Part shown: positions 8,090 to 14,447 of the stretch, piece after piece
Position numbering within the stretch: the stretch's first letter is position 1
Layout: the number at the start of each line of letters is the position of its first letter
DNA from: Bacteroidaceae bacterium
Lineage (GTDB): Bacteria; Bacteroidota; Bacteroidia; Bacteroidales; Barnesiellaceae_A
Assembly (NCBI GenBank): GCA_017935645.1
Contig: JAGBHF010000027.1
Coordinates: 1 to 53,572, forward strand
Direction of reading: 5' to 3'
DNA: 53,572 nucleotides
Program-made: the position numbers and the translations under genes
The notes under the pieces: generated by a model
Databases searched by the model: none
Told to the model about the DNA's origin: nothing
The model's input: only the letters and a program-made list of their open reading frames with translations

Positions 8090-8149
8090 CAAATTAAACT
8101 ATCTTTCTTGAAAAAACGGTAATAAGAACCGAAAAATGTGAATGCGAAA

Positions 8150-8866
8150 ATGAAAATAGCACTTATAGGATATGGCAAGATGGGGCATGTGATAGAGGAA
8201 ATCGCTATAGCCCGCGGTCACGAGGTGGTGTGTCGCATTGATGTCGATAATCAGGACGATTTTGCTTCGCAGGCCTTTGCGTCGGCCGATGTCGCTATCG
8301 AATTTACCACCCCGGCAACAGCTGTCGACAATTATAAGAGAGCCTTTGCAGCCGGTGTGCCGGTAGTGTCGGGTACGACCGGTTGGCTGGAGCGTATGCC
8401 CGAGATTAAGGCTGCTTGTGAAGCCGGTGCAACATTCTTTTATGCCTCAAACTTCAGCTTGGGTGTCAATGTGTTCTTTGCAGTGAACCGCTGGCTGGCG
8501 AGTGTGATGAATCACTTTGAAGACTACAAGGTGAGTCTCGATGAGATACACCATATACATAAGCTCGACCACCCGAGTGGCACGGCTATAACCTTGGCCG
8601 ATGGTATTATTGATAATATCGACCGCCTATCGTCGTGGAGCGAAACATCGCAAGCCGATGATATACTGCCCATTACAGCACAACGCGAGGGCGAAGTGCC
8701 CGGCACACACATCGTGCGATATGACTCGGAGGTAGATACAATTACTATCGAACACCGCGCCAAGAGTCGTCGCGGATTTGCCTTAGGTGCTGTTGTTGCT
8801 GCCGAGTTTACCGTGGGTAAAAAGGGTTTCTTGACAATGAGCGATATGCTCTCATTTATGAAATAA
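8150..8866 (+). CDS. dapB: 4-hydroxy-tetrahydrodipicolinate reductase
   Basis: It reduces 4-hydroxy-tetrahydrodipicolinate with NAD(P)H in the diaminopimelate/lysine pathway (cytoplasmic), supplying DAP for peptidoglycan. The N-terminal Rossmann motif IGYGKMG is present. The family signature EIHHIHKLDHPSGTA holds the catalytic His pair and Lys. At 238 residues it is a compact form of the family. I chose the ATG at 8150 (MKIALIGYGKMG) over an in-frame GTG 12 nt upstream because the Rossmann strand starts right there. It is first in an operon with two signal peptidase genes and a WbqC-like gene; lepB starts 17 nt downstream. Confidence 0.95.
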   Translation: MKIALIGYGKMGHVIEEIAIARGHEVVCRIDVDNQDDFASQAFASADVAIEFTTPATAVDNYKRAFAAGVPVVSGTTGWLERMPEIKAACEAGATFFYASNFSLGVNVFFAVNRWLASVMNHFEDYKVSLDEIHHIHKLDHPSGTAITLADGIIDNIDRLSSWSETSQADDILPITAQREGEVPGTHIVRYDSEVDTITIEHRAKSRRGFALGAVVAAEFTVGKKGFLTMSDMLSFMK

Positions 8867-8883: not shown

Positions 8884-10353
8884 ATGGAAAAGAAAATAGT
8901 AACCGATACAACATCGCAACAACCGCGACCTCGCAATTTGGTGGCTCGCCTTAAGACAGTAAGCACATCGCGTTGGGTGCGATTTGGTGTTTTTACACTC
9001 ATCTTTGTGTTGTTGACAATATGGATAGGCAGTGCGTGGACACTGTTGGCATATCCGCTCTTTTTTGATATCTATCTTACCCAATACATCCCTTGGGGTG
9101 GTTGGCGAAATATCAAGAATCCTATATTGCGCACCGTGTGTGAGTGGATAGATGCTATTGTATATGCCATAGTGCTGGTATATTTTATCTTTATCTTTGC
9201 CTTCCAAAATTTTCAGATACCCACACCCTCGCTCGAAAAGTCGATGTTGGTGGGCGACTTCCTCTTGGTAAGCAAGGTGAATTATGGCCCTCGTTTGCCA
9301 CAGACACCTATCCACTTCCCTTTGGCACAACACACCCTGCCTATTGTCAATACCAAGTCGTATTGCGATGCTTGGCAGTTGCCTTATAAACGCTTGAAGG
9401 GTTTGGGTCAAGTTGAGCGTAACGATATTGTTGTGTTTAACTTTCCTACCGGTGATACAGTGGCAAGCAAGATGCCCAACCCCGACTATTATACCTTGGT
9501 ACACTACTTCGGTCGTGAGGCGGTACATCGTGACAAAGCTCGTTTTGGCGAAATTATCTATCGTCCTGTCGACCGTCGCGAAGCGTATGTGAAGCGTTGT
9601 GTGGGTTTGCCCGGTGAGGACTTCGAGATACGCAACAACATTATCTACATCAATGGCGAGGCTATCGCTTCGCCCAAGCGTATGCAACTCAATTACTTCG
9701 TAAAGACAACCGGCAACAAGTTGAGTGAGAAGAACTTTGAGGATTGGGGTATCAGTGTTGACGACCGCATGTATGTCAACAACTCATCCAACGCACCCTA
9801 TCTTTTTGCATCGTTGGGTATTACTCCCAATGCAGCAGGTGGCTACAATCCTGTGTATCACTTCCCTCTCACCGAGGAGGCTCTCGCCAAGGTGAAGGCT
9901 TCGAGTTTTGTTGAACAAGTCGTGGTAGAGCCAGGTGAAATGGGTGGCGAAGTATTCCCTATGGATGGCATACACCATTGGACTCGTGCCGATTTTGGAC
10001 CTCTGTGGATTCCTGCCAAGGGCGAAACATTGCAACTCACTGCCGAGAATTACACACTCTACGAGCGTGCTATACGCACCTATGAGGGCAATAAAGTAGA
10101 GATGCGTAACGGTGTTATCTATATCAATGATGAACCGGCTACCGAGTATACCTTCAAGATGGACTATTACATGATGTTGGGCGACAATCGTGACAATTCG
10201 GCCGACTCGCGTTACTGGGGTTTTGTCCCTGAAGACCATGTAATAGGCAAGCCTGTGTTGGTACTTATCTCATTGGATAAGGATAAAGGCTGGTTTAACG
10301 GCAAGTTCCGTTGGAATCGCTTCATGCGTAGTGCCGATTCGCTTGTAGATTGA
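8884..10353 (+). CDS. lepB: Signal peptidase I, long Bacteroidota form, catalytically competent
   Basis: It cleaves signal peptides from Sec-exported preproteins at the periplasmic face of the inner membrane. Protein of 489 residues. Hydrophobic segments lie at about 32-57 and 88-109, then the catalytic core begins. Ser116 (IPTPSLEKSM, aligned with the canonical IPSGSM box) and Lys237 (YVKRCVGLPGE) form the Ser/Lys dyad. Box E, GDNRDNSADSRYWGF, is intact. About 200 residues separate the Lys box and box E, making this much longer than the E. coli enzyme. It is followed 7 nt later by a degenerate paralogue. The many T9SS cargos and lipoproteins nearby underline the demand for export, although lipoproteins themselves use LspA. 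Confidence 0.93.
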   Translation: MEKKIVTDTTSQQPRPRNLVARLKTVSTSRWVRFGVFTLIFVLLTIWIGSAWTLLAYPLFFDIYLTQYIPWGGWRNIKNPILRTVCEWIDAIVYAIVLVYFIFIFAFQNFQIPTPSLEKSMLVGDFLLVSKVNYGPRLPQTPIHFPLAQHTLPIVNTKSYCDAWQLPYKRLKGLGQVERNDIVVFNFPTGDTVASKMPNPDYYTLVHYFGREAVHRDKARFGEIIYRPVDRREAYVKRCVGLPGEDFEIRNNIIYINGEAIASPKRMQLNYFVKTTGNKLSEKNFEDWGISVDDRMYVNNSSNAPYLFASLGITPNAAGGYNPVYHFPLTEEALAKVKASSFVEQVVVEPGEMGGEVFPMDGIHHWTRADFGPLWIPAKGETLQLTAENYTLYERAIRTYEGNKVEMRNGVIYINDEPATEYTFKMDYYMMLGDNRDNSADSRYWGFVPEDHVIGKPVLVLISLDKDKGWFNGKFRWNRFMRSADSLVD

Positions 10354-10360
10354 TACCATT

Positions 10361-11365
10361 ATGTCACACCGAGGCTCGACAATCCTTTGGGGTATAGCTG
10401 TAGTCGCAGTGGCACTGCTATCGGCTGTGTTGTGTCGTGTATTTGTGGTGGAGATGTTTACCGTCGCACCACAACAAATGGAGAATACCCTCTTGCCCGG
10501 TGATAGAGTGCTGGTCGAAAAGTGGCACTATGGCGTGCGCCTGCCACAATCGTATGTTTCGTTGCCATGGGTCGACACCCTGCCCGGTACCGATCTGCCG
10601 GCACGTCTGCCTGAGACCCCGTTGCCATATAAACGATTGGGTGAACAATTGGTGAAACACAATGATGTAATAGCCTATAATTACCCTACCGGCGAGCCCT
10701 CTCCCTTGGCACAGTACCCTACAGCCGTGGCGCGTTGTATAGGTGTACCCGGTGATACGATAGAGGCGCATGAGGATATGTTGTATATCAATGGAAAGCC
10801 CTCGGTGCAAAGTCCGGTGATAACCGAAGCCTATCTTGTGCCCGACTCGTCGTTGAGTGTGGTCGAAGAGGCTATGAAAGAGCTTTGGGGCGAAGTGTTG
10901 CCTCGACAAACTATTGGCGAACAGTCGCTCTTCTATATCGACCGTTATAGTTATAGCAAACTTGCCGACAGAGTGTCGCCATCGCAACTGCCTCGCTTGG
11001 TTACGTTGGCACATGACAATTACTATATCGAGCTACCCTCTTATGGCAAAGATGCCATTATAACCCCGCGCAATGCGGCCTTATATGCCCATATCATTAA
11101 TAGTTATGAGCCCTGCAAGGTGGAGTTGCAAGGTGATACTTTGTATTGTGACGGGCGCAAGATGAGTCGTTATCGTTTTTCACAACCTTATTACTGGGTA
11201 TTGTGCGACAATCGTACGGCTGCAACCGACTCTCGCAACTTCGGGGTACTTCCTCATAGCCATGTGATAGGTCGTTGCGGGATGATTGTCTTTTCAATAG
11301 ATGCCGAGCAGAGGGGATTTGACTCATGGCGCATTGAGCGTTTTTTTCAATATCGCAAACTATGA
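10361..11365 (+). CDS. Signal peptidase I-like pseudoenzyme lacking the Ser/Lys dyad
   Basis: Protein of 334 residues with one N-terminal membrane segment (about 8-30) and clear collinearity with the preceding LepB: GDRVLVEKWHYGVRLPQ matches GDFLLVSKVNYGPRLPQ, LPYKRL is shared, and ARCIGVPGD matches KRCVGLPGE. The catalytic Ser position is Gln39 (APQQMENTLLPGD) and the general-base Lys position is Ala124. Box E survives only partly (CDNRTAATDSRNFG). The reading frame is intact and sits between lepB and an overlapping WbqC-like gene, so this looks like a maintained, inactive paralogue rather than a decaying gene. It may scaffold, regulate or bind substrate for LepB. Function is inferred only. 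Confidence 0.85.
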   Translation: MSHRGSTILWGIAVVAVALLSAVLCRVFVVEMFTVAPQQMENTLLPGDRVLVEKWHYGVRLPQSYVSLPWVDTLPGTDLPARLPETPLPYKRLGEQLVKHNDVIAYNYPTGEPSPLAQYPTAVARCIGVPGDTIEAHEDMLYINGKPSVQSPVITEAYLVPDSSLSVVEEAMKELWGEVLPRQTIGEQSLFYIDRYSYSKLADRVSPSQLPRLVTLAHDNYYIELPSYGKDAIITPRNAALYAHIINSYEPCKVELQGDTLYCDGRKMSRYRFSQPYYWVLCDNRTAATDSRNFGVLPHSHVIGRCGMIVFSIDAEQRGFDSWRIERFFQYRKL

Positions 11366-11991
11366 AACATCTATATTTGAGTAGTGCCTACTGGGCTCCT
11401 ATATCATACTATACAGCGTTGTATCGTCATCGTGGTGCGGTTATAGAGCAACACGATACTTACATAAAGCAAACCTATCGTAATCGTTGTGCTATTGTTG
11501 GAGCACAGGGCGTGCAGATGCTTACCGTTCCCGTTGAGAAACCTCAGCCCAATATGCTCATGCGCGATGTGCGCATCAGCGATCATGGCAATTGGCGTCA
11601 TCTGCATTGCTCGGCCATTGCGTCGGCTTATGGCTCATCACCCTTTTATGAATATTATGCCGATGATATCAATCACTTTTATGAGCAACGGTATGACTAC
11701 TTGCTTGACTATAATTGTGCACAAATCGACTGCGTGTGTAGGTGGTTGGACATAAAACTCGATATATCGCGTAGCGAAACATTCTTGACCAATATAGGAG
11801 ACCATATTACCGACCTGCGTGAGGCGATACATCCCAAGCATCCCGATATGACGCTCTTATCGCCCTATATACTCCAACCTTACTACCAAGTGTTTGCCTC
11901 TCGACATGGTTTTGTACCTAATCTTTCAATACTCGACCTGTTGTGTAATATGGGCAATGAGTCGTTGTTGTTATTGGCAGGAGTGCGTTAA
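11362..11991 (+). CDS. WbqC-like family protein
   Basis: Protein of 209 residues matching the WbqC-like family (YLSSAYWAPISYY at the N-terminus in place of the usual PxYfPsxxYF start, then YIKQTYRNRCAI, a TVPVEKP segment, and SAYGSSPFYEYYAD). Family members occur in O-antigen or surface-polysaccharide loci in Proteobacteria and are common as stand-alone genes in Bacteroidota; the biochemical role is not established. The start codon overlaps the stop of the preceding signal peptidase-like gene (ATGA at 11362-11365), indicating translational coupling. It is the last gene of the dapB operon. Confidence 0.85.
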   Translation: MKHLYLSSAYWAPISYYTALYRHRGAVIEQHDTYIKQTYRNRCAIVGAQGVQMLTVPVEKPQPNMLMRDVRISDHGNWRHLHCSAIASAYGSSPFYEYYADDINHFYEQRYDYLLDYNCAQIDCVCRWLDIKLDISRSETFLTNIGDHITDLREAIHPKHPDMTLLSPYILQPYYQVFASRHGFVPNLSILDLLCNMGNESLLLLAGVR

Positions 11992-12272: not shown

Positions 12273-12548
12273 TTATTTACGGATACCAAGCTCTTTTTGT
12301 GCAATGATGGCACGGTAGCGGTTGATGTCAGTGCGGATAAGATAATCCAACAAACGACGACGTTTACCTACCAACATTTTAAGAGCGCGTTGAGTGGTAT
12401 AATCTTTGTGATTTGACTTGAGGTGCTCAGTCAAATGAGATATACGGTATGAAAACAATGCAATCTGTGCTTCGGGTGAGCCAGTATCAGTGTTAGACTT
12501 TCCGTACTTCTCAAAGATTTCCTGTTTTTTCTCAGTGGTTAAATACAT
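12273..12548 (-). CDS. rpsO: 30S ribosomal protein S15
   Basis: Protein of 91 residues, the normal size for S15. It binds the central domain of 16S rRNA early in 30S assembly. Recognised by the four-helix sequence with TGSPEAQIALFSYRI, HLTEHLKSNHKDY and MLVGKRRRLLDYL, the conserved RNA-binding core. It is a single gene with its own strong promoter and terminator. Confidence 0.98.
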   Translation of the reverse strand: MYLTTEKKQEIFEKYGKSNTDTGSPEAQIALFSYRISHLTEHLKSNHKDYTTQRALKMLVGKRRRLLDYLIRTDINRYRAIIAQKELGIRK

Positions 12549-12695: not shown

Positions 12696-14447
12696 TTATG
12701 GAATGCTCAATTTGGTAGCTGTATTGTTGTAGGCAACTATGTAAATACCTGCCGACGGAGCCGTGATAGCGCCCTCTCCGTGTACCACAGCAAAGCCTTG
12801 CATGTTATATAATGTTATGTGACCGTTGTATCGGATGGTGCGATTATCTACAATCAGTTCTCTCTTGTTGTAAATGGGTGTGACGGTAGCCAGATGAGTG
12901 CCTATAAATCCATTTATGTTGTACATGCCATTGTTGTGTAGAGGAAGGTCCTCGGTTTGATGTTCTCCCACACCGCTATGCCCATCGTTGAATATAATCA
13001 TGGGATTGTCGAGGATACACCCCGGGTCGAAGCTGATGGTGTAATACTCCACTCCGTCGATAAGGGTCGTGCGGTTGATGCGTCTGCCGGGCCAATCATC
13101 AAGAAGTATAGTTGTCGTATTGTTATACACCCAACTATAGGCATATATCTCCTCCCAATCGGTGCCTTGCGGGTCGAAGTATGCGGTGTAGCTTGTTTGA
13201 GAGGGTTTCTTCTCGGCATCACCCCAATGTTGAGCAAGGAAATCAGTTCGTTCACGAATGTTATTTTTCATTGTTGTGCCGTCCTTTGTTACGTTCATGC
13301 TGCCATAGTCCGGCCAGCGACGGTCGTCGGCTTGTATGGCTGCCTCGTAGGTTGTGACATAGTTGTCAATGAATGAGTATATATCGTCGAAATTCGCTTC
13401 GCGCAGTGATAGCCATATCTCTTTTACCTTTTCTTCAAATCGTGGAAATTTTGCTATTTCGGCAATCCACGTTTGTCCGTAGGGGGGATTTTCATAAATG
13501 AATAGTCCGTTGTCACGACGGAAGGTGTTGCCAAAATCCCATACGGGACCGAACTTCCACTTTTGCTCATTACCCATATCGCGGTACATATAGCAGCTAC
13601 CATGAAATGATTCGGCATTGTCGAGAATCTCTTGTACAATGTAAAAGCGAGCCAATAGGTCGAGGTCGATATATTCCTCCCATGTGGTTGAATTTTTATC
13701 TTCGGCATAGATGGCTGCATCTATGGCTGTCATTTGTTCGCGCAAGAAATTCTCTTGTTCTGCCGACAGCTCCTCGGGGGTCTTGTAGGTAAAAATAATA
13801 CGTTCGCCATTGCCTTCGGTAATGCGCACATGGGGGTCGGTATCGTAATTGTCTATTTCTACCAGCCAACCTCCGGTGATGGCATTGGGGTCGGTCTCAT
13901 TATCGGCTTGCTCGACAATATTCACGCGGTCGCTATCAACACGTATTGTCTCGGTAAGAAAGTATAGTCCTATATATTCGCCATTAAGAACGACCTCGAC
14001 GGGTTTTGCAGTAGGAGTCCATGGCATATCAAGCATACGAGCCAATTGGTAGCCAACGGCATTACGCAATCCCGAGAGTTCATCGTCGGCATTAGCCATC
14101 AAGGCAAAATGCTTGCTCTTGTTCATGCCCATTATAGCTGTTTTGGATGCAAACTTGATGCGGTAAGGTTTCTTGTCAAATCCATTCCAAGTCCAGTTTC
14201 CTCTACCTCTTATCTCGAGTGCAAGTTGGTTGTCGGCACTACCCAGCGCATCTATCCCCTCACATCCCATGGGATCGAGGTAGTATGTGGCTTGTAGATA
14301 CTCCTCTTTCGATGTGATAGGGGTGTTGTTTTCGGTATTGATGTACATGACAGGCTGTGTGCCCGAGAATGTAACCTCTTGTCCCCAAGTAATCAATGCG
14401 TACGAAATAGCGGCCAATAGGCTCGTGATTCTGTAACGTGTCAACAT
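12696..14447 (-). CDS. Secreted CotH-kinase-family protein with a starch-binding-like module and T9SS-like tail
   Basis: Protein of 583 residues with a signal peptide (SLLAAISYALITWGQ). Residues about 55-390 match the CotH kinase family: LEIRGRGNWTW, KPYRIKF, a SKHFALMANADD segment, ILDNAESFHGSCYMYRD and WKFGPVWDFGNTF. CotH proteins are atypical kinases that phosphorylate spore-coat or secreted proteins. In Bacteroidota their targets are unknown and some may act on surface glycoproteins or polysaccharides. A second domain (about 415-510; AYFDPQGTDWEEIYAYSW ... WPGRRI) resembles starch-binding module CBM26. The C-terminus (ITLYNMQGFAVV ... PSAGIYIVAY) resembles a T9SS sorting domain. Transcribed alone from a -7 box just upstream. 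Confidence 0.82.
   Translation of the reverse strand: MLTRYRITSLLAAISYALITWGQEVTFSGTQPVMYINTENNTPITSKEEYLQATYYLDPMGCEGIDALGSADNQLALEIRGRGNWTWNGFDKKPYRIKFASKTAIMGMNKSKHFALMANADDELSGLRNAVGYQLARMLDMPWTPTAKPVEVVLNGEYIGLYFLTETIRVDSDRVNIVEQADNETDPNAITGGWLVEIDNYDTDPHVRITEGNGERIIFTYKTPEELSAEQENFLREQMTAIDAAIYAEDKNSTTWEEYIDLDLLARFYIVQEILDNAESFHGSCYMYRDMGNEQKWKFGPVWDFGNTFRRDNGLFIYENPPYGQTWIAEIAKFPRFEEKVKEIWLSLREANFDDIYSFIDNYVTTYEAAIQADDRRWPDYGSMNVTKDGTTMKNNIRERTDFLAQHWGDAEKKPSQTSYTAYFDPQGTDWEEIYAYSWVYNNTTTILLDDWPGRRINRTTLIDGVEYYTISFDPGCILDNPMIIFNDGHSGVGEHQTEDLPLHNNGMYNINGFIGTHLATVTPIYNKRELIVDNRTIRYNGHITLYNMQGFAVVHGEGAITAPSAGIYIVAYNNTATKLSIP

What the first reader, a model, noticed from the sequence alone, without database searches (positions are those of the whole stretch)
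10361..11365. Signal peptidase I paralogue with both catalytic residues replaced, kept in an operon with the active enzyme
Seen in the sequence: aligned to the adjacent LepB, catalytic Ser116 corresponds to Gln39 and catalytic Lys237 to Ala124, while the GDxxLV, YGxRLPQ, LPYKRL and RCxGxPG blocks are retained and the frame is intact. Known: type I signal peptidases need the Ser/Lys dyad. Inference: an inactive partner that may regulate LepB, hold substrate or assemble with it. The overlapping WbqC-like gene and dapB upstream suggest a conserved cell-envelope module.
Basis: partly seen in the sequence, partly recalled or inferred. Interest (0 to 1): 0.72.

Follow-up and report, generated by a model that had tools for sequence, protein, structure and literature searches.

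The report
Dead signal peptidase copy beside LepB
Next to its normal signal peptidase gene (the enzyme that trims exported proteins), this gut bacterium keeps a second copy that has lost the cutting residues but is still under selection, and related copies sit in the same operon slot in about a quarter of the Bacteroidales families sampled, so they probably have a non-cutting job in protein export.

Summary
At 10361-11365 an intact 334-aa S26 protein follows lepB by 7 bp; Gln39 and Ala124 replace the catalytic Ser and Lys, and the supporting Ser278 and Gly272 equivalents are also gone, while fold residues stay. It is not decay: 9 of 9 genomes of the genus keep it in frame, dN/dS is about 0.11-0.18, and a single-TM signal-peptidase fold is predicted (pLDDT 92). 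Across the order, a degenerate copy lies directly downstream of lepB in 28 of 112 families read, mostly in a dapB-lepB-copy-wbqC operon. A tree of the better-alignable copies puts them on one side of a strongly supported branch, apart from LepB. A few members keep Ser and Lys, so inactivation probably happened repeatedly after one old duplication (root not inferred). Most likely it is a non-catalytic partner of LepB (adaptor, scaffold or regulator); this is inferred, not shown. Inactive S26 homologues are known (S. aureus SpsA, S. pyogenes SipA), but I found no description of this Bacteroidales group. NCBIfam's equivalog model would name it 'signal peptidase I'.

The parts
8138..8866 (+). dapB, 4-hydroxy-tetrahydrodipicolinate reductase; first gene of the operon
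   Evidence: PF05173/PF01113 and TIGR00036 above cut-off; adjacent to lepB in most loci read
8884..10353 (+). lepB, the active type I signal peptidase; Ser116 and Lys237 intact, box E GDNRDNSADSR intact
   Evidence: PF10502 136 bits, TIGR02227 128 bits; dyad invariant in relatives
10361..11365 (+). pseudo-signal-peptidase: single N-terminal TM helix (residues 2-28) plus S26-fold periplasmic domain without the catalytic dyad
10475..10477 (+). codon 39 (CAA, Gln) at the nucleophile position (LepB Ser116, E. coli Ser90)
10730..10732 (+). codon 124 (GCG, Ala) at the general-base position (LepB Lys237, E. coli Lys145)
11204..11236 (+). box E equivalent CDNRTAATDSR: Gly272 and Ser278 equivalents lost (Cys282, Ala288), Asp/Asn/Arg/Asp/Arg kept
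11362..11991 (+). wbqC-like gene, overlaps the paralogue's stop by 4 nt
   Evidence: PF08889 124 bits; next gene after 31 of 52 adjacent degenerate copies

Best explanation
It is a membrane-anchored, catalytically dead paralogue of the type I signal peptidase, best explained by one old tandem duplication of lepB in Bacteroidales. The copy kept the fold, lacks the N-terminal membrane segments that precede LepB's last one, and lost the catalytic machinery repeatedly in different lineages. It most likely works as a non-catalytic partner of LepB: made from the same operon, it sits beside LepB in the inner membrane and either forms a complex with it or binds the ends of exported pre-proteins in its remaining cleft, and so assists, times or restrains LepB cleavage. 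Shown here: homology, loss of catalytic residues, predicted fold, purifying selection, operon linkage, separation from LepB in the tree. Inferred: single duplication and repeated loss (the tree is unrooted), inactivity (never assayed), physical partnership, and the direction of the effect.
For: Loss: both dyad residues in the window and in all genus members. Across the order, S90/K145/G272/S278 equivalents are lost while M91, R146, D273, D280 and R282 stay. Maintained: 9 of 9 genus genomes, no stops; NG86 dN/dS 0.11-0.18 against 0.05-0.08 for LepB. Distribution: 28 of 112 families with a lepB locus read have a degenerate copy directly downstream of lepB, 31 of 52 such copies followed by wbqC. 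Separation from LepB: 43 rows on one side of a branch, 100/99; 50 rows, 96 SH-aLRT, with more families. Dyad-bearing members inside the group (L097, L101, L103, L107, L110, L078) make repeated later loss the simplest reading. Fold: pLDDT 91.7; E. coli LepB top match, SipA 4n31 TM 0.75 normalised to SipA. Coupling: distances of the paralogue follow LepB's after controlling for DapB and WbqC (partial r 0.50-0.63; about 0 for DapB and WbqC). S26 paralogues (mitochondrial Imp1/Imp2) can form heterodimers (own knowledge).
Against: No interaction or activity data; no LepB-paralogue complex model could be made here. The rate covariation falls to 0.34-0.38 with one genome per family, little better than LepB with DapB or WbqC (0.27-0.34), and could partly reflect shared constraint on one fold. 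The gene is absent from many families and sometimes missing beside relatives that have it (L128 in f97, L235 in f20, L178 in f3), so LepB does not need it. Some copies are not next to lepB (f77, f80, f10). SipA, the best-studied analogue, acts in pilus assembly, not on LepB. Very divergent copies (L086, L140, L174, L183, L227, L236 and others) were left out of the careful tree or have long branches, so they may be separate origins.
Confidence: 0.5

Rival explanations
1. SipA-like client chaperone: the dead peptidase binds a particular exported protein or surface-assembly component in its cleft and does not work through LepB; operon linkage only ensures co-expression.
For: Cleft hydrophobics partly kept (position 84 Tyr/Phe in 32 of 47, 86 Val/Ile in 41, 91 Met in 45, 144 Ile/Val/Leu in 42 of 47); structural match to SipA; SipA keeps the cleft, lacks the dyad and is essential for pilus polymerisation (PMC4049620).
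Against: Position kept beside lepB over many families; bulky Gln, Arg, Lys or Asn at the nucleophile site would change the S1 pocket; no candidate client. T9SS is not the client system: SprA is found in 26 of 27 genomes with a copy and 21 of 25 without, and the one with a copy but no SprA is in f59.
Confidence: 0.27
2. Divergent but active peptidase using other residues.
For: Several members of the group keep Ser and Lys (L097, L101, L103, L107, L110) and may be active; 11 of 52 adjacent degenerate copies keep Lys and 5 keep Ser.
Against: No alternative conserved Ser/Lys pair in the degenerate copies; box-E Ser278 and Gly272 are mostly lost too.
Confidence: 0.06
3. Decaying duplicate without function.
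For: Amino-acid change about three times faster than in LepB; repeated absence in relatives.
Against: dN/dS 0.11-0.18, intact frames in all genus members, same slot across families.
Confidence: 0.03
4. Decoy or buffer: it binds signal peptides or natural lipopeptide inhibitors of signal peptidase and so shields or throttles LepB.
For: SPase-like cleft in a predicted membrane-anchored protein co-encoded with the enzyme.
Against: Arylomycin-type inhibitors contact the catalytic Ser and Lys that are missing here (own knowledge); no correlation data.
Confidence: 0.08

Closest known systems
Staphylococcus aureus SpsA (partner gene of SpsB)
   Same: Type I signal peptidase homologue lacking two conserved catalytic residues, in the same genome as the essential active enzyme SpsB; dispensable (PMC12445088). 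That spsA and spsB are adjacent is own knowledge.
   Different: Firmicute, small; an independent origin is likely but was not tested. Here the copy recurs across an order, has the Bacteroidota domain insert and follows lepB.
Streptococcus pyogenes SipA / LepA (PDB 4n31, 4k8w)
   Same: S26 fold with peptide cleft, Ser and Lys replaced (Asp48, Gly85), non-catalytic role (PMC4049620; structural match).
   Different: Encoded in a pilus operon and required for pilus polymerisation; the copy here is in the lepB operon.
E. coli LepB and Bacteroidales LepB (S26A, PF10502, TIGR02227)
   Same: Same family and fold, box-E structural residues kept.
   Different: Ser/Lys dyad, Gly272 and Ser278 missing; one TM helix.
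Mitochondrial inner membrane peptidase Imp1/Imp2
   Same: Two S26 paralogues acting as a pair (own knowledge).
   Different: Both subunits are catalytic there.

Membership tests
Type I signal peptidase fold family (S26, PF10502) | Sequence match above curated cut-off | tested here: met
   93.7 bits against 22.9; TIGR02227 99.1 against 47
Type I signal peptidase fold family (S26, PF10502) | SPase fold with N-terminal TM anchor | tested here: met
   AF2 pLDDT 91.7, helix 2-28, Foldseek top match E. coli LepB, E 2e-8
Active type I signal peptidase | Ser nucleophile and Lys general base | tested here: not met
   Gln39 and Ala124
Active type I signal peptidase | Box E Gly272 and Ser278 | tested here: not met
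   Cys282 and Ala288
Active type I signal peptidase | Cleavage of pre-proteins | not testable with these tools
   needs an assay
SpsA-type inactive paralogue | S26 homologue lacking catalytic residues in the same genome as the active enzyme | tested here: met
   PMC12445088
SpsA-type inactive paralogue | Common descent with SpsA | not tested
   a resemblance of kind only
SipA-type pilus assembly factor | Encoded with sortase and pilin genes | tested here: not met
   neighbours are dapB, lepB, wbqC
SipA-type pilus assembly factor | SPase-like peptide cleft without dyad | tested here: inconclusive
   S1/S3 hydrophobics partly kept, Pro87 and Tyr143 equivalents mostly not

The most novel reading that the evidence does not exclude
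Many Bacteroidales run a two-subunit signal peptidase: active LepB plus a dead paralogue that became a fixed non-catalytic subunit and whose active site has been lost independently many times (in family f22 a second, separately derived dead copy sits on the other side of lepB).
Probability: 0.3. Interest if true: 0.72.

Novelty: new variant of a known kind. Interest (0 to 1): 0.5.

Why it matters
Signal peptidase I is essential and a drug target, and it is usually treated as a stand-alone enzyme in bacteria. A dead paralogue kept beside lepB across many Bacteroidales families suggests that these bacteria may process signal peptides with an extra subunit. It is also a misannotation trap: it passes NCBIfam's 'signal peptidase I' equivalog cut-off by a wide margin, so automatic annotation would name a dead protein an enzyme. 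The group holds dyad-bearing and dyad-less members, which makes the path from enzyme to pseudoenzyme testable.

Tried and rejected
Decay: rejected by dN/dS and intact frames. Alternative Ser/Lys dyad: none conserved. Link to type IX secretion: SprA is found in 26 of 27 genomes with a copy and 21 of 25 without, so it does not discriminate. Presence outside the order: the 29 best-scoring loci read elsewhere in the phylum carried only intact S26 proteins, about half in dapB-lepB-wbqC; a degenerate copy there cannot be excluded because the profile also matches LepB. A link to the Bacteroidetes Q-rule (PMC10653852) was considered because of the Gln, but the Gln lies in the active site, not at a cleavage site, and other families have other residues: dropped. 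The first AF2 model (12 rows, pLDDT 69) was replaced by a 66-row model. Paper searches found no description of this group; the library is open-access only.

Full report
What is there. The + strand carries dapB (8138-8866), lepB (8884-10353), the paralogue (10361-11365) and a wbqC-like gene (11362-11991), with gaps of 17 and 7 bases and a 4-base overlap; Pfam confirms each. The paralogue matches the S26 family well above cut-off and even passes the NCBIfam 'signal peptidase I' equivalog model, 99.1 bits against 47. It aligns with LepB over residues 12-330 at 26% identity; Ser116 faces Gln39 and Lys237 faces Ala124. The window's genome holds only these two S26 proteins.

More than two residues. 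I placed the E. coli active-site residues on the alignment (numbering by motif; roles from own knowledge). In 47 degenerate copies the oxyanion residue (Ser88), Ser90, Lys145, Gly272 and Ser278 are widely lost, whereas Met91, Arg146, Asp273, Asn274, Arg275, Asp280 and Arg282 remain. In a larger set (155 LepB, 57 copies), of 46 columns at least 97% invariant in LepB, the four catalytic-site columns are all among the eight least kept; so is a Gly-Asp-Thr loop at LepB 190-192. The copies were classed as degenerate by the Ser and Lys columns, so only Gly272 and Ser278 are an unbiased sign; both are among the five least kept. The decay is aimed at the catalytic site, not spread over the protein.

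Kept by selection. All nine genomes of the genus have it, in frame. Gln is invariant at the Ser site there; the Lys site is Ala in seven, Thr in one and Ser in one. NG86 dN/dS between genus members is 0.11-0.18, against 0.05-0.08 for LepB; dS is high (0.84-1.65), so these values are rough. The copy changes about three times faster than LepB. Several same-genus genomes were also met as named records, ruminant-rectum MAGs labelled Bacteroidaceae bacterium.

Distribution. Twenty-eight families have a degenerate copy directly downstream of lepB (52 copies; 31 followed by wbqC). At the Ser position the 52 copies have Q 12, A 6, K 5, N 5, S 5, G 5, R 4, T 3 and others; at the Lys position S 23, K 11, G 8, A 6 and others. 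The sample was enriched for hits of a paralogue profile, so the genome fraction is not a prevalence, and families lacking the gene in one genome may have it in another. The gene is missing in some relatives of carriers, for example L128 (f97), L235 (f20), L178 (f3), so it is dispensable at that scale. Elsewhere in the phylum the 29 loci read carried intact S26 proteins only, about half of them in a dapB-lepB-wbqC arrangement, which therefore looks older than the copy.

Origin. A careful mixture-model tree without the two catalytic columns puts 43 downstream copies on one side of a branch, 100/99, apart from LepB (bootstrap not fully settled, correlation 0.987). Adding nine copies from further families leaves all 50 on one side, 96 SH-aLRT, short search. 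Inside the group are members with Ser and Lys: L097, L101 and L103 also keep Gly272 and Ser278 and may be active; L107, L110 and L078 keep the dyad but have Asp and Ala there. The simplest reading is one duplication followed by stepwise, repeated inactivation. The tree is unrooted, the copies are long-branched, and the most divergent ones (L086, L140, L174, L183 and others) were left out of the careful tree, so separate origins for some are open. Family f22 has a further dead copy between dapB and lepB (Ala or Gly at the Ser site, Ser at the Lys site) that groups with LepB rather than with the downstream copies: a separate event.

Structure. With 66 rows AlphaFold2 gives pLDDT 91.7 and pTM 0.86: one N-terminal helix (2-28) and an S26 domain. 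The top Foldseek matches are E. coli LepB entries (E 2e-8) and the fold also covers S. pyogenes SipA (TM 0.75 normalised to SipA). TM scores to E. coli LepB are about 0.5 by target length; I think an alpha/beta insert and a differently placed second domain explain this, but did not test it.

How it works. A partner role with LepB is my first choice (about 0.5): fixed position beside lepB, absence of chemistry, retained fold and anchor, selection. Pairwise distances of the copy track those of LepB after DapB and WbqC are controlled for (partial r 0.63; permutation p 0.001 in 31 loci), but one genome per family gives only 0.34-0.38, little better than LepB with its other neighbours. I treat this as suggestive. 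A SipA-like client chaperone is the main rival (0.27). Type IX secretion is not the explanation.

Known or new. Dead S26 homologues exist: SpsA of S. aureus, dispensable and lacking two catalytic residues (PMC12445088), and SipA of S. pyogenes, with Asp and Gly instead of the dyad, a retained cleft, required for pilus polymerisation (PMC4049620). I found no paper describing the Bacteroidales group in the library. I call it a new variant of a known kind.

Noticed in passing
L084, L085, L087 (family f22), between dapB and lepB: A second, separately derived dead S26 copy (Ser site Ala/Gly, Lys site Ser) upstream of lepB, so the active gene is flanked by two dead copies.
   Followed up: partly
L092, L123, L155, L173, L176, L183: Tandem S26 genes that both keep the Ser/Lys dyad next to dapB in other Bacteroidales families.
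   Followed up: no
window 10361-11365, residues 155-224 (and LepB residues about 268-345): Predicted alpha/beta insert (strand-helix-strand twice) with weak Foldseek resemblance to PII proteins (E 0.2-0.7), apparently shared with LepB; may be a Bacteroidota-specific subdomain.
   Followed up: no
LepB residues 190-192 (window about 9451-9459): Gly-Asp-Thr loop nearly invariant in 155 LepB but lost in the dead copies as strongly as the catalytic residues; possibly an active-site loop.
   Followed up: no
L119 (G007): In this same-genus genome dapB and lepB are separated by about 2.7 kb while lepB, the copy and wbqC stay together.
   Followed up: no
window 12273-12548 (-): Looks like ribosomal protein S15 (rpsO), read by eye from the translation.
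   Followed up: no
window 12696-14447 (-): Looks like a CotH-kinase-type protein, read by eye from the translation; not searched.
   Followed up: no
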